This document shows, in pieces, positions 812-28,693 of a DNA stretch of 64,000 nucleotides (position 1 is its first letter; every line of letters starts with the position of its first letter). A model generated the notes under the pieces. It ran no database searches and had not been told where the DNA came from. It saw only the letters and a list, made by a program, of their open reading frames with translations. The translations under genes and the position numbers were made by a program. The stretch spans positions 603,794-667,793 of the forward strand of contig CAJQUW010008951.1 in the NCBI GenBank assembly GCA_907163375.1, given 5' to 3'. This DNA comes from Prostheceraeus crozeri (lineage: Eukaryota > Platyhelminthes > Polycladida > Euryleptidae).

Positions 812-817
812 AATATA
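812..817. repeat. Target-site duplication, left copy (AATATA)
   Basis: The hexamer AATATA immediately precedes the left TIR and recurs at 20323-20328 immediately after the right TIR. Six-base duplications are the family standard for Polintons. Confidence 0.9.
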
Positions 818-1540
818 AGTAATGGATAAAAGACCGTTCCAGGACACCATAAAATCAAAAAAATGGTATCTTTAAAAACGACATAAATTCATGAATTTAG
901 ACCCTTTTTCAGGTTTTTAAGACCTAAATTCATGAATTTGGTTCATTCAAAAAGTACCATTTTTTTCAAAAATGGTACTTTTAAAAACAACATAAATTCA
1001 TGAATTTGAACCCTTTTTCAGGTTATGAAGACCTAAATTCATAAATCGGCTAAAGCCAGAGGAGCTTCGCTCCGATTTGGGCGTTTTTAAAAATACACAA
1101 TTTTCAAATTTTTCAAAATCTCAAATTTGTGATTATGACATTTTTCATTGCTTAAATCATGACCGTTCCAGGACACCGAAAATCATAAAAGTTAAGAATC
1201 TCAAATTTGTGATTATGACATTTTTCATTGCTTAAATCATGACCGTTCTAGGACACCGAAAATTATAAAAGTTAAGAATCTCAAATTTGTGATTATGTCA
1301 TTTTTCACCCCCCGCCAAAATCATGACCGTTCTAGGACACCGAAAACCCGGACACCGAAAAAATCATAAAAGTTGAGAATTTCAAATTCATGAATTTTAT
1401 CCATCTTTCAGGTTTTTAAAATATATCATGTGACTAAAAATATTTCTTTAAAAATGGAAGAAACAAAAGTGGAAGGAACTTCAGAAATGGATGAAACCGC
1501 AAGAATATATCCTTCGTTATCTCAATTAAAAATAAGTGAA
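818..1540 (+). repeat. Left terminal inverted repeat (723 bp)
   Basis: This is the reverse complement of 19615-20322 and stays collinear from the outer AGTAATGG to the inner ...AATAAGTGAA at 1540. The two arms differ in length by 15 bp, which is explained by an extra CCGGACACCGAAA-type unit near 1345-1360 in this arm. The outermost motif GACCGTTCYAGGACACC at 832-848 recurs at 1161-1177, 1241-1257 and 1325-1341. The palindrome AAATTCATGAATTT occurs at 885, 926, 994 and 1384. The inner 87 bp encode the first 29 codons of the first gene. Confidence 0.93.
1047..1076 (+). repeat. Dispersed double mini-hairpin, type B copy in left TIR
   Basis: A 30-bp unit with two adjacent palindromes, GGCTAAAGCC and GGAGCTTCGCTCC. 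Near-identical 30-mers lie at 16216-16245 (plus) and 18876-18905 (minus), and the mirrored TIR copy is at 20066-20095. Confidence 0.8.
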
Positions 1541-5089: not shown

Positions 5090-5184
5090 TTTTATATGAT
5101 AATTTTATATTATTATTTTATTTTATTTTTATAATATTTTATATTGTTATATTGTTATATTGTTATATTGTTAAATTTAGAAAA

Positions 5185-5278
5185 TTAAAAAGGTTCAGTA
5201 GTTATTCCATCAGGTAAAATTTTTCTTTTATCATCAAATGGATCTAATGCTAATTTATGTTCTTCTTTTAAATACATT
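5185..5278 (-). pseudogene. C-terminal tail of the DNA polymerase, out of frame
   Basis: On the minus strand, an open stretch of about 30 codons ends at a TAA at 5185-5187. It contains ALDPFDDKRKILPDGI, the typical extreme C-terminus of Polinton-type polymerases. It is one frame away from the polymerase ORF that stops at 5268. The break maps to the short A-run near 5276-5278 and looks like a one-base loss. If it is genuine, the polymerase lacks its last 30 or so residues. Confidence 0.75.
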
Positions 5279-7568
5279 TATGTTTTTTTGAATTAAGTCT
5301 ATAATTACATGCTGTTTTTATTTCAGTATTAAATAATGCATTTTTATAATCTTGAAATGTTATTTGATTAGCCACTGATGCCTTTGAAATTCCTTTTAAT
5401 GTTTTATGTGTTTTAATATTATTAGTTGTATCATAACAGTAACATTTAGATTTTAAAAATATAGCTTCTGTTATGAAATCTTCATTTCCTTCTAATTCAT
5501 CTTTTACTTTACATAAATCAGAAGGATGAATAATATCTTTTATTTTATTAATTTCTTTATCTAGTGAAGAACCATATGGTACTGTTAATTCTAAGAAAAT
5601 AGAATCGGTATCTGTAAAGTGTAATTTATAGTTTTTGCCATAAGCAGGTGCTAAATAATCATATATAAAACTATACATAAATAGTTTAGCTAATTCTAAT
5701 ATAGTGAAACCAATGAAATTAAACTTATCATGTTTTACAATGCTTCTTCTTAGATGAACAGCACAAAGTTCATCACTGAATCTAGTAGTTCTTTTATATG
5801 TAGGTTTCCTTGTTAAATTTTGAAATCTATCTCTATCATAAACTATTTCAATATTTTGTCTATTACGTACATTTTCTAAAGTCTTACCATAAAATGCATT
5901 ATTCATTAATTTGAAGAAAACGTTTCCAAAATCATCTTTATTTCTTTTAGCTATTTTACGTTTTTCAATATTGAACTCTATATAATTTTTTAACCATTTA
6001 GATTTTCTATACTCTAGTTTTCGATGTATTTTGGTGAGAATCATGCCATGATTTAAATACCAATCTAGCATTCTTCCTTCAACAACATACTTTCCTTTAT
6101 TACCTTGTGTTAACATAAGTTTTTTTGTTGGTCTGTATTTTTTCGGCATTATAGATTTTTGATAATCTGAAAAATCTTCTATATTGGGAATTTTGTTTTC
6201 TGGACAGAAAGGATAATATTTTGTTGCTTCTTTTATATAATCAGGGTATACTAAATCAACTTCATATACATAACCAAAATTATTTTCACCATCATATGTT
6301 CTTTGATAAACAAGATTATTACACCATGTCATTTCACCTGTTGGTAATTCTTGTATCATGCAAGAAGAATATAAGCTATTAAAATCATAATATAACAAAT
6401 AGTTTTCTCTCATGAATTCATCAATTGCTTTTTCACGTTCTACTCCTTCTCGTTTCGTTCGAAAAATTTCTAATATTTTTTCTTTTTCTTCTGGAGATAA
6501 AGGTTTCATTATTCCATATTCTTGTGGATTTACTTTCTTATTATAACATTTAACATATCTATTACCTAAAACTGATGAAACTCCACCTCTAATTCCAGAT
6601 TCAAAAAATAATAATTTATCATATGTATTTTCTTTATAATGTTTAAGTTTAACGGACTTTGTCCTAGAGCCATCGGCTTGAACATTTGTATGTTTTAATC
6701 CTGCTAGCCATGTTAAACCTGGTGTAGAATAACAATAACATGGATCTATTCCGTAATATTCTAAACACATATCACGAAAGTTTTCAAAAAGATCAGCTAG
6801 TATTAATACATCTATCTGTAGATATTTCATTGTATAATCATACATTGTTTTACAATTTAACTCTCTCCAATTCTTTTCAGCTTCTGCATAATCTTCTTCA
6901 GATAATTGTGATTGTTTTAATGTTGATTTAAATTTATTTATTGGAGGAAGTTGTTCTTCTTCCATAATTTTATTCACAGAATTAAAATCAGTCTTCGACT
7001 GTGAACCACAGGTTTTATCTCCAGTTATATCAGTCTTCGACTGTGAGCCGCAGGTTATATACTCATACGGAAATATTCCTTTTAAAGGTTTTAAATTATA
7101 TTTATTTAATATTTTACACTGTTCAGGTTTCAAAGTTTTTCCCATAACATCTAATGAATAAGGAGTAAAAAATCTAAATGCATCTAAAATTCTAATACAA
7201 CCTAATTGCATTGAAAAATATTCTTCTTCTTGTTTACATAGTACATTTATTTTTTGTTGTTGTAATTTTTCAGATGAAAATAAATCTTTCATTACTAGAT
7301 GGAAATCATATTTAGAACCATTGTAGAAATATAAAGGAACAAAGTTATATTTAAATTTGTTAGCATTAAGATTACAAGAATTATGTGCTGCACCTCTATA
7401 TAATCCATTTAGATGATCATGATCTTTTACTTTATCAATATATCTACCTCTGCCAGTTTTATATTTATTTGTAAAACCTTTTCCACAGTAATAACAATTT
7501 ATTTCATCATAAAATTCTTTTCTTTCTTCATCCGTTAATGGTATCATTGGTTTATTTGTTTCAAGCAA
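5268..7568 (-). CDS. Protein-primed family B DNA polymerase, C-terminal part (exonuclease and palm)
   Basis: About 766 residues, with no ATG at the start; the frame opens upstream of the TTG at 7568 and overlaps the N-terminal ORF. Residues 25-66 carry a Cys/His cluster of the endonuclease VII type (CYYCGK, KDHDHLNGLYRGAAHNSC). Exo II is at about 82-90 (YNGSKYDFH) and Exo III at about 249-259. Palm motif A is YYDFNSLYS near 393, motif B is KLMNNAFYGKTLEN, and motif C is TDTDS. Together these indicate a complete polymerase/3'-5' exonuclease core for strand-displacement replication of the linear element. A 9-residue repeat TCGSQSKTD occurs twice near 172-195 and is encoded by mini-hairpin units. 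The N-terminus and Exo I are in the adjoining ORF. Confidence 0.9.
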   Translation of the reverse strand: MLETNKPMIPLTDEERKEFYDEINCYYCGKGFTNKYKTGRGRYIDKVKDHDHLNGLYRGAAHNSCNLNANKFKYNFVPLYFYNGSKYDFHLVMKDLFSSEKLQQQKINVLCKQEEEYFSMQLGCIRILDAFRFFTPYSLDVMGKTLKPEQCKILNKYNLKPLKGIFPYEYITCGSQSKTDITGDKTCGSQSKTDFNSVNKIMEEEQLPPINKFKSTLKQSQLSEEDYAEAEKNWRELNCKTMYDYTMKYLQIDVLILADLFENFRDMCLEYYGIDPCYCYSTPGLTWLAGLKHTNVQADGSRTKSVKLKHYKENTYDKLLFFESGIRGGVSSVLGNRYVKCYNKKVNPQEYGIMKPLSPEEKEKILEIFRTKREGVEREKAIDEFMRENYLLYYDFNSLYSSCMIQELPTGEMTWCNNLVYQRTYDGENNFGYVYEVDLVYPDYIKEATKYYPFCPENKIPNIEDFSDYQKSIMPKKYRPTKKLMLTQGNKGKYVVEGRMLDWYLNHGMILTKIHRKLEYRKSKWLKNYIEFNIEKRKIAKRNKDDFGNVFFKLMNNAFYGKTLENVRNRQNIEIVYDRDRFQNLTRKPTYKRTTRFSDELCAVHLRRSIVKHDKFNFIGFTILELAKLFMYSFIYDYLAPAYGKNYKLHFTDTDSIFLELTVPYGSSLDKEINKIKDIIHPSDLCKVKDELEGNEDFITEAIFLKSKCYCYDTTNNIKTHKTLKGISKASVANQITFQDYKNALFNTEIKTACNYRLNSKKHKCI
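6989..7043. repeat. Two CAGTCTTCGACTG hairpins inside the polymerase gene
   Basis: Perfect palindromes with a TTC/GAA loop at 6989-7001 and 7031-7043, part of a direct duplication. The duplication adds an in-frame TCGSQSKTD repeat between the exonuclease motifs. Confidence 0.75.
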
Positions 7569-9754
7569 TTGTGAAAAACGTCTTCTACTTTCTTTGTAAA
7601 CATTTCTGAACTGTCTTCACCATAGTATTGTAAATATTCTGATTTAAATAATTCAGGATAATTTGAATGAATGTACATTCCCCAACATAATGGTTTTTGT
7701 TCAAATAAATATTTTTCTTTACTTTTTCCAGGTGCACTTTTTCCAGGCGCACTTCTTTCAGGCGCACTTTTTTCAGGCGCACTTTTTTCAGAATTATAAT
7801 TTTCAGAATTATAATTTTCAGAATCGGGTGAAGCCCTGGAACTTTCCGTTCGATTTTGTGTCATATTAACATTATATGCTTCAAAATCACAATAAATAGT
7901 AAAGGGTACTTTATTTTTAAAATACCATTTATTATATTCTAAATAATCATCTTTAGGAAAAGTATTTTGAACTGCTTCGTTTTGTTGACAATTCTCCAAA
8001 TGTCTATTCATTTCTTCTAAAGTTCTAAAACTTGTCATACATTGAAGACAAGGAAAATTTTTATTATCTGAAGTTTTTGTAAATATAGAAACATCTTTAC
8101 ACAATATAAAATGACCCTGATAATATAATATATTCGCTTGTGCTGGTTGTTTTGACTGTTCTAGTTTTTCAAATTCATCTTTATATATTTCATGTGTTTC
8201 ATTAATTTCTTTTGTAAGATTAAATGTATTTTGATAATAATTTTGATTTAATATTTGTAACTGATAACTATATTCTTTATCATATTGTTCTTTATATTGT
8301 TGTAGACATTTTTTTAAACATTCATTTATTTTTTGATTGGTTTCATTTTCTTCATTATTTAATTCTTTATTATTTAATTTTTTATTATTTTCTTCATTTA
8401 ATTTTTGAATTGTTTCTATCTTATTTTGATATTTATGGTGATATTCTTGTAGTAACATTTGTGTTTGTTGTTGATAATCTATTTTACATTTTTGTAAACT
8501 TTTATTTAAATTTTCTAATTTTTGTTGATATTCTGAAGATAAAGATGAATATTTGTAATTATAATCATCAGTACGTCCTTTATAATTATTATGATTAATC
8601 ATTATTGGTGATAGTGTTTTAACAAGTTCAAATTTTTCAGTACATATTATATTTCCTTGGTAGAAAATATTATGATGCATGTAATTACCTCTATCATTAT
8701 ATACTATTTCTGATTGGCAAAAATTTTTATTATTCAAATAAAATTTTTTTGAATCTGAGTAAAGTGGAGTAATTTTACCAATAGAAACATAATTCACATT
8801 TAATTCAAAAACATTTACTTCAATTAAATTTTTATTCTTTTTATGAAACTTTAGTAACCTATTATAATCATATGGAAATTCATCTAAGCCATCAGAAAGA
8901 TCAAATTCACTTATGTATTCTTCTTTATTGTAATGACTTAGTCTTTCTTTGTGATATTTTGCAGGATGTAAATGTGCTATAATACTCCACAGAAAACAAT
9001 AATCATCTTCATTTTTTATGTTGATTATTTGTGGTGAACTGAAAGGCAAAGGAACATAACTACCACCAGTATTATTTTTATATTTATCAATTACTATTTT
9101 CTTAGATATTATTTTAACAAATCTCCAACCAGATTCACGTAACTGGGCTTCAATTATACAATTTTCTAATTTAAGTATCATCGATTCAAATATGGGTTGT
9201 ATATCATTTACATTATGTATTTCTTGTGAATTTGTAAAATGTCCTTGTATTATTTCTTCAGGAATTCCATCAGGTCCATTTTTTGTATAAAGTACTTCTA
9301 CATTCATATAACATTTGAAAGATTTCTTAAATATATTATAAAAGTTGGTTAGAATATCAGAAAAAGTTTTATCGGTTTCATTATGTTCAAAAGACTGATT
9401 AAATAAATATTTTATATTTGCTAAGGCTTCATCGGTTCGTTCAGCTTCATCAAATTCATCTATTTCGTTAAATTCATCAGTATCGCTAAATAAATATTTT
9501 ATATCTGTTACGGCTTCATCTTCACTATTAAAAAATTTTTTATATTCCGAATGTGAATAATCATCAAACATTTTTTTAACTTTTATATCAGTAGGCAATG
9601 TTTCTAGATAGTTTTTATAACTATTTAATTTTAATATATTTCCATCATCAACTCGTTCTACATTTTGTAAATGCATTTTACTTTGTAGATGAGATTGATA
9701 ACTTCTTTTTGTTTGCAACTTTTTTTTACATAAGTTGCAATAAAATTTTTCCAT
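7544..9754 (-). CDS. DNA polymerase B, N-terminal part with zinc fingers and Exo I
   Basis: 736 residues with an ATG at 9754. The N-terminus has a C2H2-type finger (CNLCKK...SYQSHLQSKMH). The central part is Gln/Asn-rich coiled coil, and a second finger (CLQCMTSFRTLEEMNRHLENC) precedes Exo I, IYCDFEAYN. A region with YCFLWSIIAHLHP is typical of the N-terminal extension of protein-primed polymerases. Just after Exo I is a tandem KSAPE/KSAPG repeat, preceded by SSRASP encoded by a mini-hairpin. The frame shifts by one base into the ORF ending at 5268. The likeliest point is the five-A run at 7574-7578 (plus strand), because both sides then read as conserved polymerase. A real break or an assembly error is possible. 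Confidence 0.88.
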   Translation of the reverse strand: MEKFYCNLCKKKLQTKRSYQSHLQSKMHLQNVERVDDGNILKLNSYKNYLETLPTDIKVKKMFDDYSHSEYKKFFNSEDEAVTDIKYLFSDTDEFNEIDEFDEAERTDEALANIKYLFNQSFEHNETDKTFSDILTNFYNIFKKSFKCYMNVEVLYTKNGPDGIPEEIIQGHFTNSQEIHNVNDIQPIFESMILKLENCIIEAQLRESGWRFVKIISKKIVIDKYKNNTGGSYVPLPFSSPQIINIKNEDDYCFLWSIIAHLHPAKYHKERLSHYNKEEYISEFDLSDGLDEFPYDYNRLLKFHKKNKNLIEVNVFELNVNYVSIGKITPLYSDSKKFYLNNKNFCQSEIVYNDRGNYMHHNIFYQGNIICTEKFELVKTLSPIMINHNNYKGRTDDYNYKYSSLSSEYQQKLENLNKSLQKCKIDYQQQTQMLLQEYHHKYQNKIETIQKLNEENNKKLNNKELNNEENETNQKINECLKKCLQQYKEQYDKEYSYQLQILNQNYYQNTFNLTKEINETHEIYKDEFEKLEQSKQPAQANILYYQGHFILCKDVSIFTKTSDNKNFPCLQCMTSFRTLEEMNRHLENCQQNEAVQNTFPKDDYLEYNKWYFKNKVPFTIYCDFEAYNVNMTQNRTESSRASPDSENYNSENYNSEKSAPEKSAPERSAPGKSAPGKSKEKYLFEQKPLCWGMYIHSNYPELFKSEYLQYYGEDSSEMFTKKVEDVFHNCLKQINQ
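7826..7836. repeat. Mini-hairpin variant GGGTGAAGCCC inside the polymerase gene
   Basis: A degenerate copy of the GGGCGAAGCCC family, followed by CTGGAA. It is read in frame on the minus strand as part of SSRASP, the same peptide encoded by the copy at 16739-16756. Confidence 0.65.
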
Positions 9755-9898: not shown

Positions 9899-11467
9899 TT
9901 AATTATTAAGTATTTCACTTACACCATTTATTAATGGTTTTATATCATTATATGTTTTTTTGGCTTCATCAAATGTAGATTTAGCATCAGAAAATGTAGA
10001 TTTAACATCAGATATTATTGGGGTTGCTTTTCTTAATCCGTTTCTAACATCATTTATTGCAATTTTTAAATAGTTTAATGTTTCATTATCTTGTAATCTT
10101 TTTGGTATTGGTATACCAAATTTTGCATTTAAATAATGATCAAAATAAAAATAAAATGTATCAGGAATAATTTTTAGTGGTACTTTTGCTTCGGATTCTA
10201 AAAAGATAATTATTTGTTCTATAACTTGATTTGATAAATGTTTTGTATTTGCATACATTCTAATATCAAAATCTTGAGAGTTATTATAGATTTCATGTTC
10301 GGTATCTACTAATATATTTAAATCTTTATCATATACTTGCATATGTTCACTTATGGTGTCAACACGTATTATTCCATATTTATGATGTGTATAATATGAT
10401 AAAGGCATATTCATTTTATAATTTTTATTAATATCATTAAAGAATGCTGCATTATTTTGTGTAGTTGTAAAAAATGTTTGAATGTTTTCTCTAATTTTAT
10501 TATCTACATCACAAGCTTTATGAGCTAATACAACTATTTGAATATTTTGATGTCTTCCTTTTGTAAATATTTCTGACATATTTTTTTGTTTTGATAAACT
10601 TGCAACATCATCTAAAATTAATAAAGATTTATTTTCAGGTGTACCAGCAAAACTTTCCATATCTTGTAACTCATCTAATTGTTTATCATTATAGACGTTT
10701 GTAAAAGTTGGCCATTCAGAAGTATGCATACAAAAAATATGTACTTTTGTTTCGTCCTTATAATATTGGTTTATATATTTTTTAATAAACGTAGTCTTAC
10801 CACTTCCAGTTTTACCGTAAACAATGAAATGTAAATTTTCTTGATACATTTTACCTTGTTTAATATTTTTATTATTAGTTTTTTCCTTAATCTTATCTTC
10901 CTCAGTCTTCCATCCTTCAAAAGTTTTTTTTTCTTGATTATAAAAAATCATTCTCTTTTGTTCCTCTGTTAGAAAGTAACCCCATTGATTTCCAATACAT
11001 ATAACAAGATGATAAATAAAAAATATTAAAATACATGCTAACAATATTTTTATACAATGAAATTTTAAAAAATTCCAAAGACGTGTAAGATCTGATTGTG
11101 GTATTTTTTTATTAAGAGATGAATTAGGGGGTAGTGTCTCTAAATATCTTTTATTATATGTATTTTTATCTATATTATTATATATATTTTTATCTATATT
11201 ATTATATATATTTTTATCTATATTATTATTATTATATCTAGTATTATATATAGGATTATCTACAATATTATTAATATCTTTTAGATTCGGATCTTGAGGG
11301 GTTAGTGTATCTTGAAACTCAGTGTTATTCATATAATTATTTATTATTTCGTTTATTGCATTAAGAGATTTATGACGACTTAGATTACTTTTATTACTTT
11401 TATTACTTTTATCACTTTTAATTATAACCGGTGAATATAAATCTTCCAAATTTTCGCTTTTATTCAT
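9899..11467 (-). CDS. Second A32-like ATPase with an N-terminal membrane anchor
   Basis: 522 residues with an ATG at 11467. The first 130 residues are low-complexity, with SNKSNK repeats and three YNNIDKNI-type repeats. A single strong membrane helix (ILLACILIFFIYHLVICIG) lies at about 138-159. Then comes an ATPase domain with Walker A YGKTGSGKTT near 217-226, Walker B LLILDD near 282-287, and FTKGRHQNIQIVVLAHKA. The last segment aligns with TRGRHNNCSVFYLTQS of the packaging ATPase at 2352-3140, so the two are paralogues. A C-terminal heptad-like DVKSTFSDAKSTFDEAK repeat follows. The domain suggests DNA or protein translocation at a membrane; the exact job is unknown. Confidence 0.85.
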   Translation of the reverse strand: MNKSENLEDLYSPVIIKSDKSNKSNKSNLSRHKSLNAINEIINNYMNNTEFQDTLTPQDPNLKDINNIVDNPIYNTRYNNNNIDKNIYNNIDKNIYNNIDKNTYNKRYLETLPPNSSLNKKIPQSDLTRLWNFLKFHCIKILLACILIFFIYHLVICIGNQWGYFLTEEQKRMIFYNQEKKTFEGWKTEEDKIKEKTNNKNIKQGKMYQENLHFIVYGKTGSGKTTFIKKYINQYYKDETKVHIFCMHTSEWPTFTNVYNDKQLDELQDMESFAGTPENKSLLILDDVASLSKQKNMSEIFTKGRHQNIQIVVLAHKACDVDNKIRENIQTFFTTTQNNAAFFNDINKNYKMNMPLSYYTHHKYGIIRVDTISEHMQVYDKDLNILVDTEHEIYNNSQDFDIRMYANTKHLSNQVIEQIIIFLESEAKVPLKIIPDTFYFYFDHYLNAKFGIPIPKRLQDNETLNYLKIAINDVRNGLRKATPIISDVKSTFSDAKSTFDEAKKTYNDIKPLINGVSEILNN

Positions 11468-11802
11468 TTATTATTTTTTAAATAAAAAATTTAGGAGTTA
11501 TTATTTGTTGATTCCGGACTAGCATTCTTACACTCTTATGAGTGTTTTTAACCTCTGTAGAACCTCCGGAATGTGTCGGAATTTTTGTTCCTATACTCAA
11601 AAGAAGTATGTTCCGAACCTCTCCTCTCTTCCGGAATGCTTAAGAATATTTTAATAAAATAATATTTTATTCTTTATAAAAAATAATATTTTAATATATA
11701 TAAGATTATTTTAGTTGAAATACAACTATTTTAGTTGAAATACAACTATTTTAGTTGAAATACAACTATTTTAGTTGAAATACAACTATTTTAGTTGAAA
11801 TA
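11468..11802. repeat. Intergenic spacer with a five-fold hairpin array
   Basis: No ORF. Near 11510-11640 are repeated TTCCGGA/TCCGGAA half-palindromes. From about 11710 to 11803 a 20-bp unit, TTTTAGTTGAAATACAACTA, is repeated about five times. Each unit is itself an inverted repeat (TAGTTG-AAATA-CAACTA). A terminator, replication or regulatory role is possible but not shown. Confidence 0.8.
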
Positions 11803-12236
11803 CTAATATAAATTATTATTTTGACATAAATTATTATTTTGACATAAATTATTATTATGTTGATTATTATGTTGATTAAGTTTTGGACATAGTGTTACAT
11901 GTCGCTGAAAATTTTTCTTTAATATAATTTTTTGACAACCTCTACATTTAACTTTTTCTTTTAAACAATCCTTACACTGATATTTACTATCATAAAACTC
12001 TGTCTTAGGTTTAGTATTTTGACAACTTGTACATTGTCTTGTAGAACTTATACAAGAATTATAATGATTAGTAATTCCTTGATTTGTAAAATATTTATTA
12101 CAATTACGACATAACTGATCTTTTAATTTATCTTTTTTTTCTTTTTTAACCTCTTCTGTTTGTTCGCATAATTTTAAATGACGTGTAAAATTTTTTGATG
12201 TTATATATTTATTACATCCGGAACATATTTTTTTTT
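11803..12236 (-). pseudogene. C-terminal zinc-finger half, out of frame with the upstream ORF
   Basis: Minus-strand frame open to a TAG at 11803-11805. It encodes several Cys/His clusters: CSGCNKYITSKNFTRHLKLC, LCRNCNKYFTNQGITNHYNSC, then CTSC...CKDC...CRGC...HVTLC. It ends in a short NNNLCQ repeat. It is one frame from the ORF at 12201-12725, and the break coincides with the nine-T run at 12228-12236. The two pieces are best read as one multi-finger protein interrupted by a one-base homopolymer change. Confidence 0.75.
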
Positions 12237-12725
12237 GTTATTACTTTCAACAAATTGATTTTTATCAATATAATTATTTTGTGCTACATTATTATTTTGA
12301 ACAAAAGGATTATTTTGAACAAAAGGATTATTTTGTGCTACATTATTATTTTGTGCTAAATAATTATTATTATTTTGCCTAGGTGTATTTTGCCTAGGTG
12401 TATTTATTCTAGCAGTATTTTGCCTAGGTGTATTTATTCTAGCAGTATAAAGATTTTGTTCTTTATCTGAAATAAATAAATGCTTTAATCTTTGTAATGG
12501 TTGCTCTGATTGAATATTATTATACTGAATACTATTATAAGGTTGAATATTATTCTGAATATTATTAGGTTGAATATTATTAGGTTGAATATTATTAGGT
12601 TGTATATTATTAGGTTGTAATTGATTCATATGCATACCACATGGTGTGTTTTTCATATGAGAATATAATAGTGTTTGATTTAAAAAACGCATATTGCAAA
12701 CTTGACAAATTTGAGTCATTTCCAT
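12201..12725 (-). CDS. Zinc-finger protein, N-terminal part with Asn/Gln repeats
   Basis: 174 residues with an ATG at 12725. A C2H2-like finger near residues 7-29 (CQVCNMRFLNQTLLYSHM) is followed by tandem NIQPN repeats, alternating TPRQN/TARIN repeats and QNNPFV/QNNNVA repeats, all encoded by short direct DNA repeats. The last 8 residues are probably a frameshift artefact, because the adjacent frame continues with further zinc fingers down to 11803. It may bind nucleic acid. I do not recognise a specific family. Confidence 0.75.
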   Translation of the reverse strand: MEMTQICQVCNMRFLNQTLLYSHMKNTPCGMHMNQLQPNNIQPNNIQPNNIQPNNIQNNIQPYNSIQYNNIQSEQPLQRLKHLFISDKEQNLYTARINTPRQNTARINTPRQNTPRQNNNNYLAQNNNVAQNNPFVQNNPFVQNNNVAQNNYIDKNQFVESNNKKKYVPDVINI

Positions 12726-12754
12726 TTTTTTTATTTTTATTAGGAAAAATTTTA

Positions 12755-12845
12755 TTTTTTATAATTTATGTATTTTTATAATTTATGTATTTTTATAATT
12801 TATGTATTTTTATAATTTATGTATTTTTATAATTTATGTATTTTT
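12755..12845. repeat. Tandem TTTTTATAATTTATGTA repeat in a divergent promoter region
   Basis: About five copies of a 17-bp unit fill the spacer between the leftward zinc-finger gene and the rightward fibre-like gene. The TATAAT/TATGTA content and the position between divergent genes make it a candidate bidirectional promoter. Confidence 0.7.
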
Positions 12846-12882
12846 TATAATCAGAAAAAATTTCCTTTTTTATTGTTTAAAA

Positions 12883-13770
12883 ATGATGTTACCAAATGTT
12901 GGTGGAGGTGCATATATCCCGAATAATCGTGAATTAGAAATAGAGATAGAAAATTATATCATGAAAACTGGAGACGTTTTATCTGGACCATTGCATCTTT
13001 CTATTCTTCCACAACAAAATACAGAGTTAACAAATAAACAATATGTTGATACACAAATCAATGACTTAAAGGAAAAATATATAAACGATGTTATGGTTCC
13101 ACTGATGAACGAATTAAAGTTGCTTAAACTTAATGACAAACCATTAAACGAAAAATTATCAAAACTTGATAAAAAGGATAGAGAGCCAGAAGCAGATATA
13201 GCAAAACTTTTTAAAAAGATTTCAGAACAATCAAAAATTTTAATATTACTTTCTTTAAATTTAAAATCTGCAGTCATTAAAAATAAACATCAGATAAAAA
13301 TGTTAAAAGAACAATTAGAAGATGAAATAGAAAAACTACCTGAAAGAATTAAAAAAAATTTAAAGCAGTTGCAAACTACATTCCAAAAAAGTGTTGATGA
13401 ATTGAGTTCTAAAATTACTCAACAAATGAAAAAGATGAATAGAATAATAAATGAAGTAAACTCACTTAATGAAGAAGTTGATAAAATGAAAACTCTTAAA
13501 ATCAATTTAGAAAATGAATTAAAGAAAAATTTACAAGAAAACTCTAAAGAAAATAAAGAACAGTTAGATGCTGTTAAAAGACAATTAGATGTTCTTAAAA
13601 TTAAGTTAAATGCTCTTAAAACGGCATTGAAGATTAATCAGCAGAAAATGCAAGTTAATAGAAAAGAAATTAAAGTACATCACACGCTACTTGACGCAAT
13701 AGATAAAGTGCAACAGGCAATTAATAAAGTTATCTCGAAGTTGTTAGATATTCATAAACGTAAATCTTAA
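12883..13770 (+). CDS. Fibre-like coiled-coil protein
   Basis: 295 residues from the ATG at 12883; upstream in-frame codons are encoded by the spacer repeat and are discounted. Residues 7-15 are GGGAYIPNN. A TGDVLSGPLHLS...NKQYVD motif at about 29-56 resembles the repeated GD(T/V)(M/L)SG-L...KYVD element of phage tail fibres and virus collar proteins. The rest is long Lys/Glu-rich heptad coiled coil to the C-terminus. A trimeric virion fibre or receptor-binding stalk is plausible, but no globular head is visible. It starts the rightward structural block. Confidence 0.7.
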   Translation: MMLPNVGGGAYIPNNRELEIEIENYIMKTGDVLSGPLHLSILPQQNTELTNKQYVDTQINDLKEKYINDVMVPLMNELKLLKLNDKPLNEKLSKLDKKDREPEADIAKLFKKISEQSKILILLSLNLKSAVIKNKHQIKMLKEQLEDEIEKLPERIKKNLKQLQTTFQKSVDELSSKITQQMKKMNRIINEVNSLNEEVDKMKTLKINLENELKKNLQENSKENKEQLDAVKRQLDVLKIKLNALKTALKINQQKMQVNRKEIKVHHTLLDAIDKVQQAINKVISKLLDIHKRKS

Positions 13771-13929
13771 ACAAGTATTGTAAATATTAACTTAAATATT
13801 TTTTACCTACAAAAAATAAGAATCATAAAAAATATAAATATAATTTAAAAAATACAAAAATATAAATATAATTTTAAAAATATAAAAGTATAAATATATA
13901 AAAGTATATAAAAGTATATAATTTTAAAA
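13771..13929. repeat. AT-rich spacer with ATATAAA repeats
   Basis: Repeats of AAATATAAATATAATTT and AAAAGTATAT fill the gap before the 57-aa micro-gene. No other signal is seen. Confidence 0.5.
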
Positions 13930-14103
13930 ATGGATAAAATTAGAGCTAATAATTTTAAAAGAATTAAACAATTAGAAGAGTTAATAAAAGAAAGAAATAT
14001 TATGAAAGGAAATCATAGAATAAAAAGAATGATTGATGCAGGTTTAGTTTCTGATAAAGTTAAACCAAAAACGCAATCTGCAAAAGTTAAGAACAAAAAA
14101 TAA
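13930..14103 (+). CDS. 57-aa micro-gene, paralogue of the N-terminus of the 4268-5089 protein
   Basis: ATG at 13930, TAA at 14101-14103. The product begins MDKIRANNFKRIKQLEELIK and matches the first 45 residues of the minus-strand protein at 4268-5089 (MDKVRADNFQRIKQLEEL...) almost position by position, including ERNIMK, N-H and the M-I-A-G segment. It then ends in a Lys-rich tail (VKPKTQSAKVKNKK). The homology shows that the short frame is real. It may be a basic, DNA-binding or assembly peptide derived by duplication of a coiled-coil module. The function is unknown. Confidence 0.75.
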   Translation: MDKIRANNFKRIKQLEELIKERNIMKGNHRIKRMIDAGLVSDKVKPKTQSAKVKNKK

Positions 14104-14136
14104 ACATTTTTTTATAATGGACATCGGTTCATGGGT

Positions 14137-14174
14137 CAACGGAGATGTCTTCCAGGGCTTCGCGCTTCGCCCGT
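14137..14174. repeat. Type A mini-hairpin copy between genes
   Basis: GGGCTTCGCGCTTCGCCC at 14155-14172, preceded by CGGAGATGTCTTCCA. The preceding bases are shared with the copy at 16729-16756, and its reverse complement is shared with 4210-4283. Confidence 0.75.
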
Positions 14175-14213
14175 ATTTATATTTTTCCAAAAAGTCAAAT
14201 TTATTACTAAAAA

Positions 14214-14759
14214 ATGCCTATAATTTATAAACACAATCTTAAACATTTTGCATCAAATAATAAAATTGCTCATGAACCATCTCAGAAACCTGTGTACCAT
14301 TATGATAGTGTAGAAACTGTCGGAACACAAAAGTTCCTAGGCACCGCAGGTGCCGTCCAAAAAGAAGGGGATGACATCTTTTCTGGTATTGGTAGTATCG
14401 TTAACTTAATTAAAAATAATAAAGATTTGATTACATCTGCTGCAAAAGGAGCAGCTGCTATAGGTAGTACAGCTAGTGCAATATCAAATGCTGTTAAATC
14501 ACAAAACGAATTAAAACAACTAGAAGCTATTCGTAAACTCAAGAATGATTCTGAAGAACTAAAAAAATTAAAAAAACTTTCAGATGAAACAAAAAACAAA
14601 ATTGCTAACATAGCTGTTGGGGAAACCTTGAGGAGCGGAGCTCCGTCTGATAGTAAACATAATGAAAAAACAATTGAAGAAATAAGAGGTAATGGCGTGA
14701 GCAGCAACCTTCCGTCTAACCAACAAAGCTGTAGCGGAGCTGGTCTAGCAAAATTCTAA
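14214..14759 (+). CDS. Small virion-type protein with amphipathic helix
   Basis: 181 residues with an ATG at 14214. A Lys/His-rich N-terminus is followed near residues 55-95 by a Gly/Ala/Ile-rich amphipathic stretch (LIKNNKDLITSAAKGAAAIG), then a Lys/Glu helix and a Ser/Gly-rich tail ending GAGLAKF. Composition and position just upstream of the major capsid gene fit a minor capsid or membrane-active protein analogous to adenovirus pVI, but no family-defining motif is seen. The coding sequence contains a mini-hairpin variant GGAGCGGAGCTCC at 14632-14644. Confidence 0.7.
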   Translation: MPIIYKHNLKHFASNNKIAHEPSQKPVYHYDSVETVGTQKFLGTAGAVQKEGDDIFSGIGSIVNLIKNNKDLITSAAKGAAAIGSTASAISNAVKSQNELKQLEAIRKLKNDSEELKKLKKLSDETKNKIANIAVGETLRSGAPSDSKHNEKTIEEIRGNGVSSNLPSNQQSCSGAGLAKF

Positions 14760-14856
14760 AAATTATATTTTAGTAAAATTTTTTTTAGTAATTTTTTTAG
14801 TAAAAATTTTTTTCTATCTGTGAGAAAAACAAAAAGTCAAATTATTTCTTATAAAA

Positions 14857-16191
14857 ATGTCTTCGCTTATCGAAAATAAATTTAGATTAGATGATCCTCC
14901 GTTCACCAGTTACAATCAAAAAAAGAATGACTATATAAGAATTGCTATGAATCCCGGATCTTCCAGTAGAGTAAATACTGGAGGAGATTTAATCTTTGAA
15001 GTTGATAATCAGCAGAGTTATTTATATTTACCTGATTCATTTTTACACTGTGAATATTCTTTATATAGTGATGCTAATTTTACAACACCATTACCAGATA
15101 CCGATAATATTACACTAGAGAATAATTTTTTCCCAAGTTTATTTACACAAATGCGTTTAGATGTTGCAACTCAAAATATAGAAACAATAAGTGATTCCCC
15201 AGGTGTAATTGATACAATGCTTAGATTTATAACAATTGGTGAAAATAATAAAAAGCATGAAATCGAAGGTTGGTTTCCTGATACTAATGATGGTATAATT
15301 ATTGATGATTTAACTCACGCTGGAACAGATGCCGCAGGAATTGCGAAAGATGTAGAAAATATTGCAAAACATTTAAATAAAACAAATAATGAAGCATATA
15401 AAGAAAGACGTGAATTTAACAAAAAAAGTAAACAGACAGTAAATTGGTCATTGTGTCCATTATTCGGATATTTAGATTATGATAAAATATCATATCAATT
15501 AAAATTTAAATTAATAATTCATCGTACAGCAAATAATGAATTAATCTTTTTTGGTAAGACTGGGAAAAAAGCATATTTAAAAATTGATAGACTTGAATGG
15601 TGGATTAAGCATATTACTCCTAGTTTAGAGGTTGAAACAGCTATTGCAAAAAGATTAAATACTAACAAACCAATTCCAGTTAATTTTCTAAAGAGAACTG
15701 CTAGTTCAGTAACTTTTTCCGAACAAAGATTTAACTGGCATTTTACTAGAACTGCGAATACTCCAAGATATTTATTACTAACATTTCAAAGAAATAATTC
15801 TCCAAGTTTTGATAAGAACAATAATATCTTCCATATTAATACAATTCGAAGTTTACAAGTTTCATTAAATCAAACTCGATATCCAATTGATCCATTAAGA
15901 TTCGATGATACCAATAATCAATTTATGGAAGGATATGATTCTTATAGAAATCTTTGTATAGAATTTGGAGTTGAACCACAACTAACTCCTGGAGATTGGA
16001 GACATTTATATCCAATTTTCTGTTTCGATTTAAGTGCACAATCTGAAGATATTATTAAAAATGGTTGTGATGTAACAATTAATATTGAAAAGAAAGATTC
16101 CACAACTTCATTGATGGCTTATGGTTTATTGCTAGAAGATGCAAAATATTCTATTGAAATTCTTAATGGAAAGATGGTTAGGATTGGTTAA
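14857..16191 (+). CDS. Major capsid protein, double jelly-roll
   Basis: 444 residues with an ATG at 14857. It has the signature of Polinton-type major capsid proteins. An N-terminal beta domain is followed by RYLLLTFQRN, QVSLNQTRYPIDPLRF, a YPIFCFDLSAQSED segment and a C-terminal pair of strands ending in SIEILNGKMVRIG. The FDLSAQSE segment corresponds to FDLTADSDIS in the capsid protein of the second element (62550-63826). It is shorter than adenovirus hexon and in the range of compact capsid proteins. Trimers would form pseudo-hexagonal capsomers. The gene lies in the rightward structural cluster. Confidence 0.85.
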   Translation: MSSLIENKFRLDDPPFTSYNQKKNDYIRIAMNPGSSSRVNTGGDLIFEVDNQQSYLYLPDSFLHCEYSLYSDANFTTPLPDTDNITLENNFFPSLFTQMRLDVATQNIETISDSPGVIDTMLRFITIGENNKKHEIEGWFPDTNDGIIIDDLTHAGTDAAGIAKDVENIAKHLNKTNNEAYKERREFNKKSKQTVNWSLCPLFGYLDYDKISYQLKFKLIIHRTANNELIFFGKTGKKAYLKIDRLEWWIKHITPSLEVETAIAKRLNTNKPIPVNFLKRTASSVTFSEQRFNWHFTRTANTPRYLLLTFQRNNSPSFDKNNNIFHINTIRSLQVSLNQTRYPIDPLRFDDTNNQFMEGYDSYRNLCIEFGVEPQLTPGDWRHLYPIFCFDLSAQSEDIIKNGCDVTINIEKKDSTTSLMAYGLLLEDAKYSIEILNGKMVRIG

Positions 16192-16389
16192 TAACCTGAG
16201 GACCCTTGGTCCGATTGGCTGAAGCCAGAGGAGCTTCGCTCCGATAGGTTAATTAAAATTTTTTTCATAACTAGAATAGATTAAAATTTTTGTTAACTTA
16301 AAAATTCTTAACTAAAAATTTTTCATAACTAGAATAGATTTAAATTTTTTGTTAACTTTAAATTCTTAACTTAAAATTTTTTATTAAAA
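16192..16389. repeat. Spacer with a type B mini-hairpin and a 50-bp duplication
   Basis: The type B 30-mer lies at 16216-16245. Then a roughly 55-bp AT-rich unit (CATAACTAGAATAGATT...) is repeated twice between about 16265 and 16380. Confidence 0.7.
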
Positions 16390-16917
16390 ATGTCGCAAGC
16401 GAAAAGTAATATTAATAATAAAACTGTTGAATTAAAATTACGTAATATTGTTGACAAAAATACCCCTAAAACTATTACGATTAACAAAAAAAAGTATTAC
16501 ATAAGTAAACCAATGATAAGGAATATTCAATTACAAGAAGAAAAGAATGGTGGGATTCTTCCATTAATTCCACTAATAATAGGTGGCATAGCTGCAGCAG
16601 GAAGTGTTGCAGGTGGGACAGCTGGTATTGTCCAAGCAGTAAATAAAAATAAATCAGAGAAGGCAGCATTAGAAGAACAAAAACGTCATAACAGAGAGTT
16701 AGAGAAAGTTGCTAGGGGTGAAGGGACAACGGAGATGTCTTCCAGGGCTTCGCCCGAAGGAAAAGGAGTAGTAGATAATTTTATTAGTAAATTAAAATTA
16801 GTTGATGAAGGAAAACGAGTTCTTAAAAATATTCTCCACAATGTTGATGATTTAATTGAAATTAAAGAAACTAAAGATGGTTCTGGAATATATCTAAGTC
16901 CTAGTATGATAAGGTAA
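16390..16917 (+). CDS. pX/pVI-like precursor with GG-hydrophobic hairpin
   Basis: 175 residues with an ATG at 16390. The Lys-rich N-terminal half ends in GG at about residues 54-55, followed directly by a hydrophobic ILPLIPLIIGGIAAAG stretch with Pro and Gly. This is the arrangement seen at the C-terminal end of adenovirus core precursor pX. The GG junction is a plausible adenain-type cleavage point, although the residue four places upstream is not the usual Met, Ile or Leu. A helix and a mini-hairpin-encoded MSSRASPEGKG follow. It probably acts in genome condensation or membrane penetration. The call is an inference from layout. Confidence 0.65.
   Translation: MSQAKSNINNKTVELKLRNIVDKNTPKTITINKKKYYISKPMIRNIQLQEEKNGGILPLIPLIIGGIAAAGSVAGGTAGIVQAVNKNKSEKAALEEQKRHNRELEKVARGEGTTEMSSRASPEGKGVVDNFISKLKLVDEGKRVLKNILHNVDDLIEIKETKDGSGIYLSPSMIR
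16745..16755. repeat. Mini-hairpin GGGCTTCGCCC inside a gene
   Basis: Perfect 4-bp stem with a TTC/GAA loop, embedded in a 26-base match to 14137-14162. It is read in frame as SSRASP. Confidence 0.7.
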
Positions 16918-16975
16918 TAACCTCAGAACCTTTGGTTCCTTTCGGTAAAACATTCATTTTATTTTATCTTTTAAA

Positions 16976-18286
16976 ATGAATTCCACAAATTCCGAAAATT
17001 TAATTAAATTAAAAATTTCTAATTTAGATTTATTGAATTATCTATTAAACAAAAATAAAAACTCAAATTGTAAAATTTATGAAGGTAACGACGACAAACA
17101 AAGTTTGGCTACTACCTACGGTGGTGACATACAAAAAACATTAGAAAACTTTCCTGGATTTATTTGGAGTAAATATTCGAAAGAAAAACATCTTCCTGGT
17201 CATTCATATACCGGTCCAGGAACTCGATTAGATATAAGACTAGATGAGAATAATAATCCGAAACCAGGTGAAGAACCAATAAATAGAGTAGATGGCGCCG
17301 CTTACAGGCATGATTTAGCTTATCGAAATCATGATCTAAGTTCTCGACATGCAGCTGATAAGAAGATGATTCAAGAATTAGATAGTATTCAGAATCCTAC
17401 ATTTAGAGAAAAAATTGAAAGAATGTTTGTTAAGAAAGCTTTACAAGCTAAAATATTATTCGGTCAGGGTTTAAATGAAAATCATAATTCAGACGTTTAT
17501 GCATCTGAAATTCATAAAGAATATAGAAAGCCTAAATATTTATTAAAAGTAAAAGTATTTAATAAAGATGATATTTGGAGTGCTGATCTTATTCATATGC
17601 CGAATGAAAGGGACTACAAATACGCATTGACCGTTATAGATTTATATACACGATATGCTTGGGTAAAGCCTTTAAAAAATAAAAGTGGTCTTTCAGTTAA
17701 ATATGCGTTTGAAGAAATCTTTAAAGAAAGTAATAGAAAGCCAAAAAAATTGTTTGTTGATAAAGGGTCGGAATTTTATAACCGAAACGTTCAGCCACTA
17801 TTTGAAACTGTTTATTCAACTGAAAACGCAGGAAAAGCTGTAGTGATAGAAAGATTCAATCGGACGTTAAAAAATAAAATTTTCAAAAAGTTTACTCAGC
17901 AAGGAAATCAGAAATGGTTGAGGATATTACCAGGAGTTGTAGAAGAGTACAATAATAAAGTTCATTCAGGTATTGAAGAAACCCCAAAGAATGCTTTTGA
18001 CGTCCCTGATTTAATACGAAAGAAAATATTCGAGAATAATTATTCGAATGAGAGTAATCCGAATTTGCAGAAACTTAAGCCGAAATTTAAAATTGGAGAT
18101 AGAGTTAGAATATTTAAATATAAGAACAAATTTGAAAAAGGCTTTGTTGGCTATTGGACTAAAGAAATATTTGAAGTTTGCAAAATAAATCAAAGTTATC
18201 CGATTACTTATGAAATTAAAGATTTAGATAATGAGAATATCAGAGGCCGTTTTTATCAAAATGAATTACAGAAAACAGAGCTTTAA
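16976..18286 (+). CDS. Fusion of parvovirus-type phospholipase A2 and retroviral-type integrase
   Basis: 436 residues in one uninterrupted frame from the ATG at 16976. Residues 57-160 form a parvovirus VP1-type phospholipase A2: calcium loop YTGPGT (78-83), catalytic His-Asp H112/D113 within YRHDLAYRNHD, and DKK at 128-130. After a short Asn-rich linker, residues 181-436 form a DDE integrase: D204 in WSADL, D262 in VDKGSEF and E292 in IERFNRTLKN, followed by a C-terminal SH3-like DNA-binding part. The N-terminal helix-turn-helix seen in the second element's integrase (61004-62050) is missing and replaced by the phospholipase. The D262-E292 spacer is 29 residues, shorter than usual. Membrane breach at entry and integration would thus reside on one polypeptide, unless the adenain-type protease separates them. 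Confidence 0.88.
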   Translation: MNSTNSENLIKLKISNLDLLNYLLNKNKNSNCKIYEGNDDKQSLATTYGGDIQKTLENFPGFIWSKYSKEKHLPGHSYTGPGTRLDIRLDENNNPKPGEEPINRVDGAAYRHDLAYRNHDLSSRHAADKKMIQELDSIQNPTFREKIERMFVKKALQAKILFGQGLNENHNSDVYASEIHKEYRKPKYLLKVKVFNKDDIWSADLIHMPNERDYKYALTVIDLYTRYAWVKPLKNKSGLSVKYAFEEIFKESNRKPKKLFVDKGSEFYNRNVQPLFETVYSTENAGKAVVIERFNRTLKNKIFKKFTQQGNQKWLRILPGVVEEYNNKVHSGIEETPKNAFDVPDLIRKKIFENNYSNESNPNLQKLKPKFKIGDRVRIFKYKNKFEKGFVGYWTKEIFEVCKINQSYPITYEIKDLDNENIRGRFYQNELQKTEL

Positions 18287-18320
18287 CCTCTAGGTGGCGC
18301 TTTAGCTAGCTTCGCTTGAG

Positions 18321-18749
18321 TTATAGATTGTTTAACTCTAACATAATATCTAGAAATGGTACTCCTTTTTGTAATTTAAATAAAACATAAAGACATAATT
18401 GTCCACAATAAGTTGTTCCCTGTTTTTGAATTTGAAACGTATTGTATGTTCCCGTTCCAAGTAATTCTTTTACTTCATTTGTAGGTGGAAGCCCGTATGA
18501 GTCAAAATAATAATTATCTCCGTTTTTACTAAAGATACCTGCTGACCAATGTACGCCGTTTTGGTCTGAAGTGTGAAGATTCGTTATGAAATTTACAATT
18601 ATTGATGGCCTATTATTTAGGAATTGTAATTCATCCCTCATCAATATGTGAAAATTCTTTATTCCTAATCGATTAGCGATTTTCTTTAGGTCGAAATTTG
18701 TCGTAGTTTGCTTTCCATATAATTTAAAAAACTCATTTATGTTGCTCAT
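18321..18749 (-). CDS. Adenain-type cysteine protease
   Basis: 142 residues with an ATG at 18749. It shows the adenovirus protease order of catalytic elements: H67 in VHWSAG, D83 in YFDSYG, Gln near 110 and C115 in TYCGQLCL. By family knowledge it matures virion precursors, usually at GG or GxG sites. It is somewhat shorter than adenain. It is the rightmost gene, convergent with the phospholipase-integrase gene 35 bp away. Part of a homologous gene begins at 63826. Confidence 0.88.
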   Translation of the reverse strand: MSNINEFFKLYGKQTTTNFDLKKIANRLGIKNFHILMRDELQFLNNRPSIIVNFITNLHTSDQNGVHWSAGIFSKNGDNYYFDSYGLPPTNEVKELLGTGTYNTFQIQKQGTTYCGQLCLYVLFKLQKGVPFLDIMLELNNL

Positions 18750-19614
18750 TTTATAATAAAAAAATTTCTTAAGGGACCCCTAGAAGACAGAAGGGAGGGG
18801 TATTGATTTAAAACTGTTCTCTAATGATGTCTTTCCTTACTACTTATTCGATTTTGAAATGATTATATTATAATTATCGGAGCGAAGCTCCTCTGGCTTT
18901 AGCCGATTCTAATCTATATTGTTTTATATATTTCAATTTTCTTCATGACTTCATTTGTAAAATATGTTTCATCGTTAAAATGATTGTTTAAAATTGTCAT
19001 AACAACTATCCCGCATGTCGCCGTCTATGCGTTCTAAATTTAGAAGAAGAATTTTATTCTCATTTGCTTTTATTGTCAATGCACTCTTATGTGCTTAATC
19101 TATTCATGTCTTCACAATGGGAAGTACTTTACTATCCGTATGTGTTTGGCAAACGCTAAATGAATTTTGCAAATCGATTTCTAAAACTGAATTTGAAAAT
19201 AGACTTTGCAAATGGATTTTGAAAATAGATTTTGAAAACAGATTCTGAAAATAATTTACGTAGGGGTAAATTGAAATGTCAAAACTTTACGCACGCGTAA
19301 GTTGAAATGTCAAAAGTTTACCGATGGGTAAATTGAAATGACAAGATATACATAGCATGATAATTTTAGGGGAAAGCTGCTAGATGTTTCTCTCTCTTCA
19401 ATCTCTCTCTCTTCAATCTCTGTCTCTCTTCAATTATCAGCCAGTGTACGAGTTCATTGAATAATTTTGAGTTTATGAGTTACAATGATCTTCTAGTTCA
19501 CACAATTAGTACTTTAAATAATGTTGAGCATACAATAACGAAGAATGACTAAGTAATAATTGCGTCTTCTTAATTTATCATAGTGCTCTAATCTTAATAA
19601 TAATTGAGAACCAT
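18750..19614. repeat. Gene-free right arm with short tandem repeats
   Basis: No convincing ORF. A type B mini-hairpin lies at 18876-18905 (minus). GATTTTGAAAATA-like direct repeats lie near 19170-19250. Three copies of a roughly 31-bp unit (TTTACG...GTAAATTGAAATGTCAAAA) lie at 19255-19345, and a CTCTCTTCAAT microsatellite at 19390-19432. Confidence 0.6.
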
Positions 19615-20322
19615 TTCACTTATTTTTAATTGAGATAACGAAGGATATATTCTTGCGGTTTCATCCATTTCTGAAGTTCCTTCCACTTTTGTTTCTTCCA
19701 TTTTTAAAGAAATATTTTTAGTCACATGATATATTTTAAAAACCTGAAAGATGGATAAAATTCATGAATTTGAAATTCTCAACTTTTATGATTTTTTCGG
19801 TGTCCTAGAACGGTCATGATTTTGGCGGGGGGTGAAAAATGACATAATCACAAATTTGAGATTCTTAACTTTTATAATTTTCGGTGTCCTAGAACGGTCA
19901 TGATTTAAGCAATGAAAAATGTCATAATCACAAATTTGAGATTTTTAACTTTTATGATTTTCGGTGTCCTGGAACGGTCATGATTTAAGCAATGAAAAAT
20001 GTCATAATCACAAATTTGAGATTTTGAAAAATTTGAAAATTGTGTATTTTTAAAAACGCCCAAATCGGAGCGAAGCTCCTCTGGCTTTAGCCGATTTATG
20101 AATTTAGGTCTTCATAACCTGAAAAAGGGTTCAAATTCATGAATTTATGTTGTTTTTAAAAGTACCATTTTTGAAAAAAATGGTACTTTTTGAATGAACC
20201 AAATTCATGAATTTAGGTCTTAAAAACCTGAAAAAGGGTCTAAATTCATGAATTTATGTCGTTTTTAAAGATACCATTTTTTTGATTTTATGGTGTCCTG
20301 GAACGGTCTTTTATCCATTACT
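19615..20322 (-). repeat. Right terminal inverted repeat (708 bp)
   Basis: Mirror of 818-1540, lacking only a 15-bp unit. Its inner end carries the first 29 codons of the leftmost gene in mirror orientation. On the minus strand an ATG at 19699-19701 opens a 35-codon frame that stops at 19594. The motif GACCGTTCYAGGACACC occurs at 20292-20308, 19963-19979, 19883-19899 and 19799-19815 (minus). Confidence 0.93.
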
Positions 20323-20328
20323 AATATA
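20323..20328. repeat. Target-site duplication, right copy (AATATA)
   Basis: Matches 812-817. Confidence 0.9.
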
Positions 20329-28597: not shown

Positions 28598-28693
28598 GCG
28601 ATAACAATTGTGTGAAAGTGATTGATAACCAAGGTGTGTTAATAATTATTTTGTGTGTTCAATATATTAATTTCACTTAGTGACACCGAGGTT

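What the first reader, a model, noticed from the sequence alone, without database searches (positions are those of the whole stretch)
16976..18286. Phospholipase A2 fused to integrase in a Polinton
One open frame carries a parvovirus VP1-type phospholipase A2 (YTGPGT, HD at 112-113) and a DDE integrase (D204, D262, E292). I know both as separate proteins in Polinton/adintovirus elements, but I do not know of a fusion. The phospholipase occupies the place of the integrase's N-terminal helix-turn-helix. If real, the entry enzyme and the integration enzyme travel together on one polypeptide, perhaps inside the capsid, and may be split by the adenain-type protease.
Basis: partly seen in the sequence, partly recalled or inferred. 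Interest (0 to 1): 0.87.

Follow-up and report, generated by a model that had tools for sequence, protein, structure and literature searches.

The report
Phospholipase–integrase fusion in Polinton elements
A virus-like mobile DNA element makes one protein that joins a membrane-cutting enzyme to the enzyme that inserts its DNA into chromosomes; the same joined protein occurs in many related elements, which suggests, without proving it, that both enzymes travel together in the virus particle.

Summary
Observation confirmed. Frame 16976-18286 (436 aa) holds a parvovirus-type phospholipase A2 (PF08398) and a DDE integrase (PF00665), both above Pfam cut-offs. It lies in a 19,505-bp Polinton (818-20322) with 6-bp target duplications and near-identical terminal repeats.

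It is not an indel artefact. In the same genome 96 of 96 scored copies span both domains, 91 without a stop. Of the 120 nearest database proteins listed (997 found), 100 carry both Pfam domains. In 155 full-length fusions the catalytic residues of both enzymes are near-invariant, and the two domains co-diverge (r 0.71). About half of the listed chromodomain-type relatives are fused too, some with further N-terminal domains. The architecture is common but undescribed in the papers I could search.

Best reading: a virion-borne polyprotein; phospholipase for entry, integrase for inserting the incoming DNA, comparable to Gag-Pol delivery of retroviral integrase. Packaging is inferred. Protease cleavage is open: the linker LFGQG fits the (recalled) adenain consensus, but only 17 of 155 fusions have such a site. 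The 'replaced helix-turn-helix' idea is not supported: near unfused integrases lack an N-terminal domain as well.

The parts
812..817 (.). left target-site duplication AATATA
   Evidence: identical 6 bp next to both ends
818..1540 (+). left terminal inverted repeat, begins AGTAATGG
   Evidence: inverted repeat arms; 711 of 728 alignment columns identical over 813-1540: 2 mismatches, one of which lies in the target duplication, and one 15-nt gap
5268..9754 (-). family B DNA polymerase region, split over two overlapping frames in this copy (broken)
   Evidence: DNA_pol_B_2 1.6e-14 in the downstream frame; frames overlap by 73 nt
9899..11467 (-). A32-like packaging ATPase
   Evidence: Pox_A32 1.7e-10
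14214..14759 (+). small protein, probably virion-internal (inferred)
   Evidence: position beside the capsid gene, kept in related copies; no Pfam family over its cut-off
14857..16191 (+). [quoted passage not shown]
   Evidence: DJR-like_dom 1.3e-18
16390..16917 (+). pX-like small protein directly upstream of the fusion gene
   Evidence: weak Adeno_PX match under the cut-off; same strand and next to the fusion in 19 of 20 fetched copies
16976..18286 (+). phospholipase A2-integrase fusion gene, 436 aa
17183..17425 (+). phospholipase A2 domain (residues 70-150)
   Evidence: PF08398 1.6e-8; H112 155/155, D113 154/155, Y116 154/155, D128 155/155 in fusions
17456..17500 (+). linker (residues 161-175) with LFGQG at 161-165
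   Evidence: GxG at the junction in 130 of 155 fusions; model pLDDT under 50 at 164-167
17501..18283 (+). integrase part (residues 176-436): catalytic core with D204, D262, E292 and C-terminal beta domain, no chromodomain
18321..18749 (-). probable adenain-like cysteine protease
   Evidence: position, and my reading of the sequence; no Pfam family over its cut-off
19615..20322 (-). right terminal inverted repeat, ends CCATTACT
20323..20328 (.). right target-site duplication AATATA

Best explanation
The gene makes a two-enzyme polyprotein that is a component of the Polinton virion. SHOWN by sequence: both enzymes lie in one frame, both keep their catalytic residues, both are under purifying selection, they have co-diverged, and the gene sits between a pX-like small virion-type gene and the protease. 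INFERRED: the polyprotein is packed into the particle; on entry the phospholipase opens the endosomal membrane as the VP1 phospholipase of parvoviruses does; the integrase enters with the linear genome, binds its terminal repeats and inserts it with a 6-bp stagger. Fusing the integrase to an entry protein would guarantee that each particle carries both, as Gag-Pol does for retroviral integrase. Whether the particle protease cuts the conserved GxG linker during maturation is open; I think it slightly more likely than not in this lineage.
For: Both domains over Pfam cut-offs. 96 of 96 scored genomic copies fused. 100 of the 120 listed nearest relatives carry both precomputed Pfam domains; 117 of 120 by my more lenient profiles, which also count partial phospholipase ends. 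Phospholipase first in 185 of 185 two-domain proteins. Catalytic residues near-invariant in 155 fusions, the window included. Pooled pairwise dN/dS over 10 copies: phospholipase 0.25, integrase 0.11. Domain distances correlate, r 0.71 in 108 representatives, largest of 1000 permutations 0.094. No Met lies between the last phospholipase helix and the core in 93 of 155 fusions, and in the window only M150 and M208 lie in 140-210, so ATG re-initiation is a poor way to make a separate integrase. pX-like gene next to it on the same strand in 19 of 20 fetched copies, even where the capsid block is inverted. 12 of the 155 fusions carry a shared N-terminal helical domain that ends in LDG[GSA] just before the phospholipase. 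In the related virophage mavirus an integrase is said to be packaged in the particle (PMC6723459, passages) and its lipase was detected in virions (PMC11903649, passages).
Against: No virion, proteome or enzyme data for this family. The strict adenain site is in the linker of only 17 of 155 fusions; in 106 of the 130 with GxG the residue two before it is K or R. Stand-alone phospholipases also end at GxG, so the motif may only cap the last helix. Unfused integrases and stand-alone phospholipases exist, so fusion is not needed for the life cycle of all relatives. The N-terminal domain of the long forms has no Pfam family and is called a virion protein by inference only; its model is of low confidence. 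The window's own polymerase is broken, so this copy is not shown to be active.
Confidence: 0.5

Rival explanations
1. The fusion is an expression economy only. Both enzymes are made from one late gene, but the integrase works in the producing cell (transposition of new copies) and the phospholipase in entry or egress; joint packaging has no role.
For: Polintons also move within genomes: thousands of candidate places in this genome (6,835 first-look candidates for PF08398). Unfused relatives do without the link.
Against: Long co-divergence of both domains and a conserved junction. The gene lies with the capsid-side genes, and mavirus packs its integrase (passages).
Confidence: 0.22
2. The phospholipase domain serves the integrase: it stands in for the missing zinc-binding N-terminal domain as a multimerisation or tethering module, and lipid cleavage is secondary.
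For: The structural match to PFV integrase starts at model residue 165, so the phospholipase lies where PFV has its N-terminal domains. The 35 residues between the phospholipase end and the core hold no cysteine.
Against: Phospholipase catalytic residues are conserved in 154-155 of 155 fusions, which a pure scaffold would not need. Near unfused integrases lack an N-terminal domain as well.
Confidence: 0.13
3. The proteins are functionally separate: the precursor is always cut in the producing cell and the fusion leaves no joint particle component.
For: Fitting adenain-type site in the window's linker; flexible linker in the model; variable linker length, -16 to 86 by my end points, median 14.
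Against: Strict site in only 17 of 155 fusions.
Confidence: 0.12
4. Artefact: an indel or annotation error joins two genes.
For: Raw reads not seen.
Against: Same junction in 96 of 96 scored copies and in many independent database proteins.
Confidence: 0.02

Closest known systems
Polinton/Maverick (polintovirus, adintovirus-like) elements
   Same: 6-bp target duplication, long terminal repeats, family B polymerase, rve integrase, A32-like ATPase, double jelly-roll capsid gene
   Different: integrase fused behind a phospholipase A2. In Sf Maverick 1 and 2 a phospholipase-bearing CAP and INT are separate frames (PMC5803895, passages)
Parvovirus VP1 phospholipase A2 (PF08398)
   Same: calcium-loop motif, HD dyad, Y and D at the expected places (correspondence recalled)
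   Different: there it is the N-terminal extension of a capsid protein (PMC11903649, passages); here of an integrase
Retroviral integrase and Gag-Pol delivery; PFV integrase
   Different: no zinc-binding N-terminal domain; partner is a phospholipase, no reverse transcriptase
Mavirus virophage
   Same: rve integrase of similar fold (rank 7); integrase and a lipase both reported in particles (passages)
   Different: two separate proteins, and the lipase is of the PLA1/lipase-3 kind
Polinton lipases related to parvoviral PLA2, reported by Yutin et al. 2015 (PMC4642659, passages)
   Same: same phospholipase family and the same proposed entry role
   Different: no fusion to the integrase is mentioned in the passages that I saw

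Membership tests
Polinton/Maverick | 6-bp target-site duplication | tested here: met
   AATATA on both sides
Polinton/Maverick | long terminal inverted repeats | tested here: met
   about 720 bp
Polinton/Maverick | family B DNA polymerase | tested here: met
   DNA_pol_B_2 1.6e-14; frame broken in this copy
Polinton/Maverick | rve integrase | tested here: met
   39.6 bits, cut-off 32.6
Polinton/Maverick | packaging ATPase and double jelly-roll capsid protein | tested here: met
   Pox_A32 1.7e-10, DJR-like_dom 1.3e-18
Polinton/Maverick | adenain/Ulp1-like protease | tested here: inconclusive
   18321-18749 has no Pfam family over cut-off; assigned by eye and position
Parvovirus-type phospholipase A2 | PF08398 match over cut-off | tested here: met
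   35.1 bits, cut-off 23.9
Parvovirus-type phospholipase A2 | calcium loop and HD catalytic residues | tested here: met
   YTGPGT, H112, D113, Y116, D128
Parvovirus-type phospholipase A2 | phospholipase activity | not testable with these tools
   needs an assay
rve (DDE) integrase | D, D, E triad | tested here: met
   D204, D262, E292; 29 residues between the last two; in the 130 fusions that the script could parse the count is mostly 33 (67), 46 (24) or 29 (23)
rve (DDE) integrase | zinc-binding HHCC N-terminal domain (retroviral type) | tested here: not met
   about 35 residues, no cysteine, between phospholipase and core (sequence); structural match begins at 165
rve (DDE) integrase | C-terminal chromodomain of the chromodomain-type Polinton integrases | tested here: not met
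   no Chromo match in the window protein; present in other fusions (12 of 70)
Adenain substrate | (M/I/L)xGx|G or (M/I/L)xGG|x site in the linker (consensus recalled) | tested here: inconclusive
   met in this copy (LFGQG, 161-165); 17 of 155 fusions overall
Virion protein | present in particles | not testable with these tools
   no particles or proteomes at hand

The most novel reading that the evidence does not exclude
A large part of Polintons carry a DNA-virus counterpart of Gag-Pol: one virion polyprotein, in some lineages Zn-ribbon, helical core, phospholipase, integrase and chromodomain in a row, that couples membrane penetration to chromosomal integration, so that each entering particle brings its own integration enzyme.
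Probability: 0.35. Interest if true: 0.82.

Novelty: new variant of a known kind. Interest (0 to 1): 0.62.

Why it matters
Polintons are thought to be viruses as well as transposons, but how an incoming particle would integrate is unknown. A fused entry and integration enzyme, conserved in both active sites and over a wide range of relatives, predicts that integration is done by enzyme brought in by the particle. That can be tested with public proteomes and with two recombinant proteins. It also shows a domain architecture that is common in sequence databases but not described in the texts that I could search.

Tried and rejected
Indel or decay artefact: rejected by copies and relatives. Replacement of a helix-turn-helix: not supported (70 of 119 rows printed). 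A conserved strict adenain site: not borne out (17 of 155), though the density of such sites is higher in the junction than elsewhere (0.32 against 0.03 per 100 residues). A single origin of the fusion: not shown. On the integrase tree (125 rows, 99 fused) the state changes at least 10 times, 6 forced by well-supported branches (shuffled mean 23.8); on the phospholipase tree (157 rows, 104 fused) 22 and 8 (shuffled mean 44.7; few columns, and some 'alone' rows are probably cut off by contig ends). Direction (fusion or fission) cannot be read from unrooted trees. Chromodomain-type copies in this genome: 89 of 89 scored matches to P0104 reach from its residue 49 or earlier to 435 or later and none goes past 442, so no chromodomain was matched (27,421 first-look candidates, full-length matches favoured). 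Unfused integrases in this genome: not tested, because the search did not complete. IMG/VR: no relative found in three scans. Genome contigs of prokaryotes: one distant 28% match in a MAG, not used. Fold library searches listed integrases only; the phospholipase part was barely tested by fold. The second model, of a long polyprotein (P0236), has low confidence (mean pLDDT 66.2) and no fold search was made with it. Literature: ten searches gave listings; passages of eleven papers were seen. None of these passages mentions the fusion. One search is void: the tool altered the term. Three likely key papers are not held, so absence from print is not shown.

Full report
1. What is there. The frame 16976-18286 encodes 436 residues with a parvovirus-type phospholipase A2 (PF08398, residues 70-150, 35.1 bits against a cut-off of 23.9) and an integrase core (PF00665, residues 198-275, 39.6 bits against 32.6).

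2. The element. Terminal repeats of about 720 bp lie at 818-1540 and 19615-20322. Over 813-1540 the repeat alignment has 711 identical of 728 columns, with 2 mismatches (one in the target duplication) and one 15-nt gap. The element is 19,505 bp and is flanked by AATATA on both sides. With a family B polymerase, an A32-like ATPase and a double jelly-roll capsid gene it is a Polinton. The polymerase is split over two overlapping frames in this copy, so this copy is young but not shown to be active.

3. Other copies. In the window's genome (2.05 Gb, 14,165 contigs) 96 of 96 scored places match the protein over both domains, 91 without a stop. PF08398 gave 6,835 first-look candidates and 150 of 150 scored matches over the cut-off. 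I fetched 20 of the copies with short frames: 19 of 20 have integrase remains downstream of the phospholipase, and 19 of 20 have the pX-like gene directly upstream on the same strand. The capsid block is inverted relative to the fusion gene in 9 of the 19 with a capsid match, while the pX-fusion pair stays together. Over 32 loci the junction is in frame in 29 (27 of 30 distinct). So the fusion is ancestral for this family, and the broken junctions are decay. The 20 were picked for short frames, the 96 for high scores; neither is a random sample.

4. Selection. Over 10 copies with open frames (45 pairs, not independent) the pooled ratio of non-synonymous to synonymous change is 0.25 in the phospholipase, 0.11 in the integrase, 0.22 in the 15-codon linker (few sites) and 0.50 in the N-terminal 59 residues. 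Both enzymes are kept.

5. Relatives. A protein search found 997 relatives; of the 120 listed, 100 carry both precomputed Pfam domains, 117 by my own profiles, which also count partial phospholipase ends. Unfused integrases of about 300 residues were inside the length limits of that search. A search with the integrase part of a chromodomain-type protein found 5,661; of the 119 new ones listed 53 are fused and 66 are not by my profiles. A search with the phospholipase part found 153; of the 120 listed 106 are without integrase, but the length limit excluded full-length fusions. The phospholipase comes first in 185 of 185 two-domain proteins. The only organism named in these lists as I saw them is Lottia gigantea: 13 gene models, of which 3 run on into the start of the integrase. 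That animals in general are hosts is an inference.

6. Active sites. In 155 full-length fusions, the window included, H112 is kept in 155, D113 in 154, Y116 in 154, D128 in 155, D204 in 155, D262 in 155 and E292 in 154. The last G of the calcium loop is less constant (93 of 155).

7. History. Pairwise distances of the two domains correlate (r 0.71 in 108 representatives; largest of 1000 permutations 0.094), so they have long travelled together. Both trees need several changes between fused and unfused (at least 6 and 8 forced), so fusion or fission has happened repeatedly. Some stand-alone phospholipases end right at the GxG motif, for instance in GAGN, and unfused integrases begin just before the ELHKP stretch. 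The fusion therefore looks like an end-to-end join of two neighbouring genes.

8. Extra domains. Some fusions carry an N-terminal zinc ribbon (PF18930, DUF5679) and a C-terminal chromodomain. In 21 of the 155 the phospholipase starts after residue 75. Twelve of these share a helical domain (MGRYY...) that ends in LDG[GSA] just before the phospholipase, a strict adenain-type site; the other nine have no such site there. The twelve are close relatives and are not independent. Calling this domain a virion protein is inference (no Pfam family).

10. Mechanism. I favour a virion-borne polyprotein: entry by the phospholipase, integration by the co-delivered integrase. The steps shown are the fusion, its conservation and its gene context. 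Packaging, the order of events and cleavage are inferred. The closest experimental support is from mavirus, where an integrase is said to be packaged (PMC6723459, passages) and a lipase was detected in virions (PMC11903649, passages). A strict adenain site is present in this copy's linker but in only 17 of 155 fusions, so cleavage is not a settled family trait.

11. Novelty. Ten searches of the held papers and passages of eleven papers gave no mention of the fusion (listed under Tried and rejected); three likely key papers are not held. Sf Mavericks have the two as separate frames (PMC5803895, passages), and phospholipases in Polintons are known (PMC4642659, passages). I file it as a new variant of a known kind: known element, known domains, an architecture that is common in databases and apparently undescribed.

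Noticed in passing
window 5268-9754: The Polinton polymerase is split over two overlapping frames, so this otherwise young copy is broken in replication.
   Followed up: partly
L013, L015-L019, L023, L024, L027: The block of capsid gene and its small neighbour (14214-type) is inverted relative to the pX-fusion pair in 9 of 19 decayed copies with a capsid match.
   Followed up: no
genome G000: Very high Polinton load: 6,835 first-look candidates for PF08398, with groups of matches a few kb apart on single contigs, for instance C2357 and C8454.
   Followed up: no
window 28655-32739: Gypsy-type retroelement with gag-like zinc-knuckle frame and a pol frame with protease, RT, RNase H, H2C2 and integrase.
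   Followed up: no
window 38917-39969: Frame with DUF3504, QRICH1 and a weak tyrosine-recombinase match, Crypton-like (naming recalled).
   Followed up: no
P0236, P0180, P0209 and others: Long polyproteins with a helical core domain, phospholipase, integrase and chromodomain in one frame, some on megabase contigs.
   Followed up: partly
window 16976-18286: Only 29 residues separate D262 and E292; in relatives the count varies in steps (29, 33, 46), so the loop before the last catalytic residue is variable.
   Followed up: no
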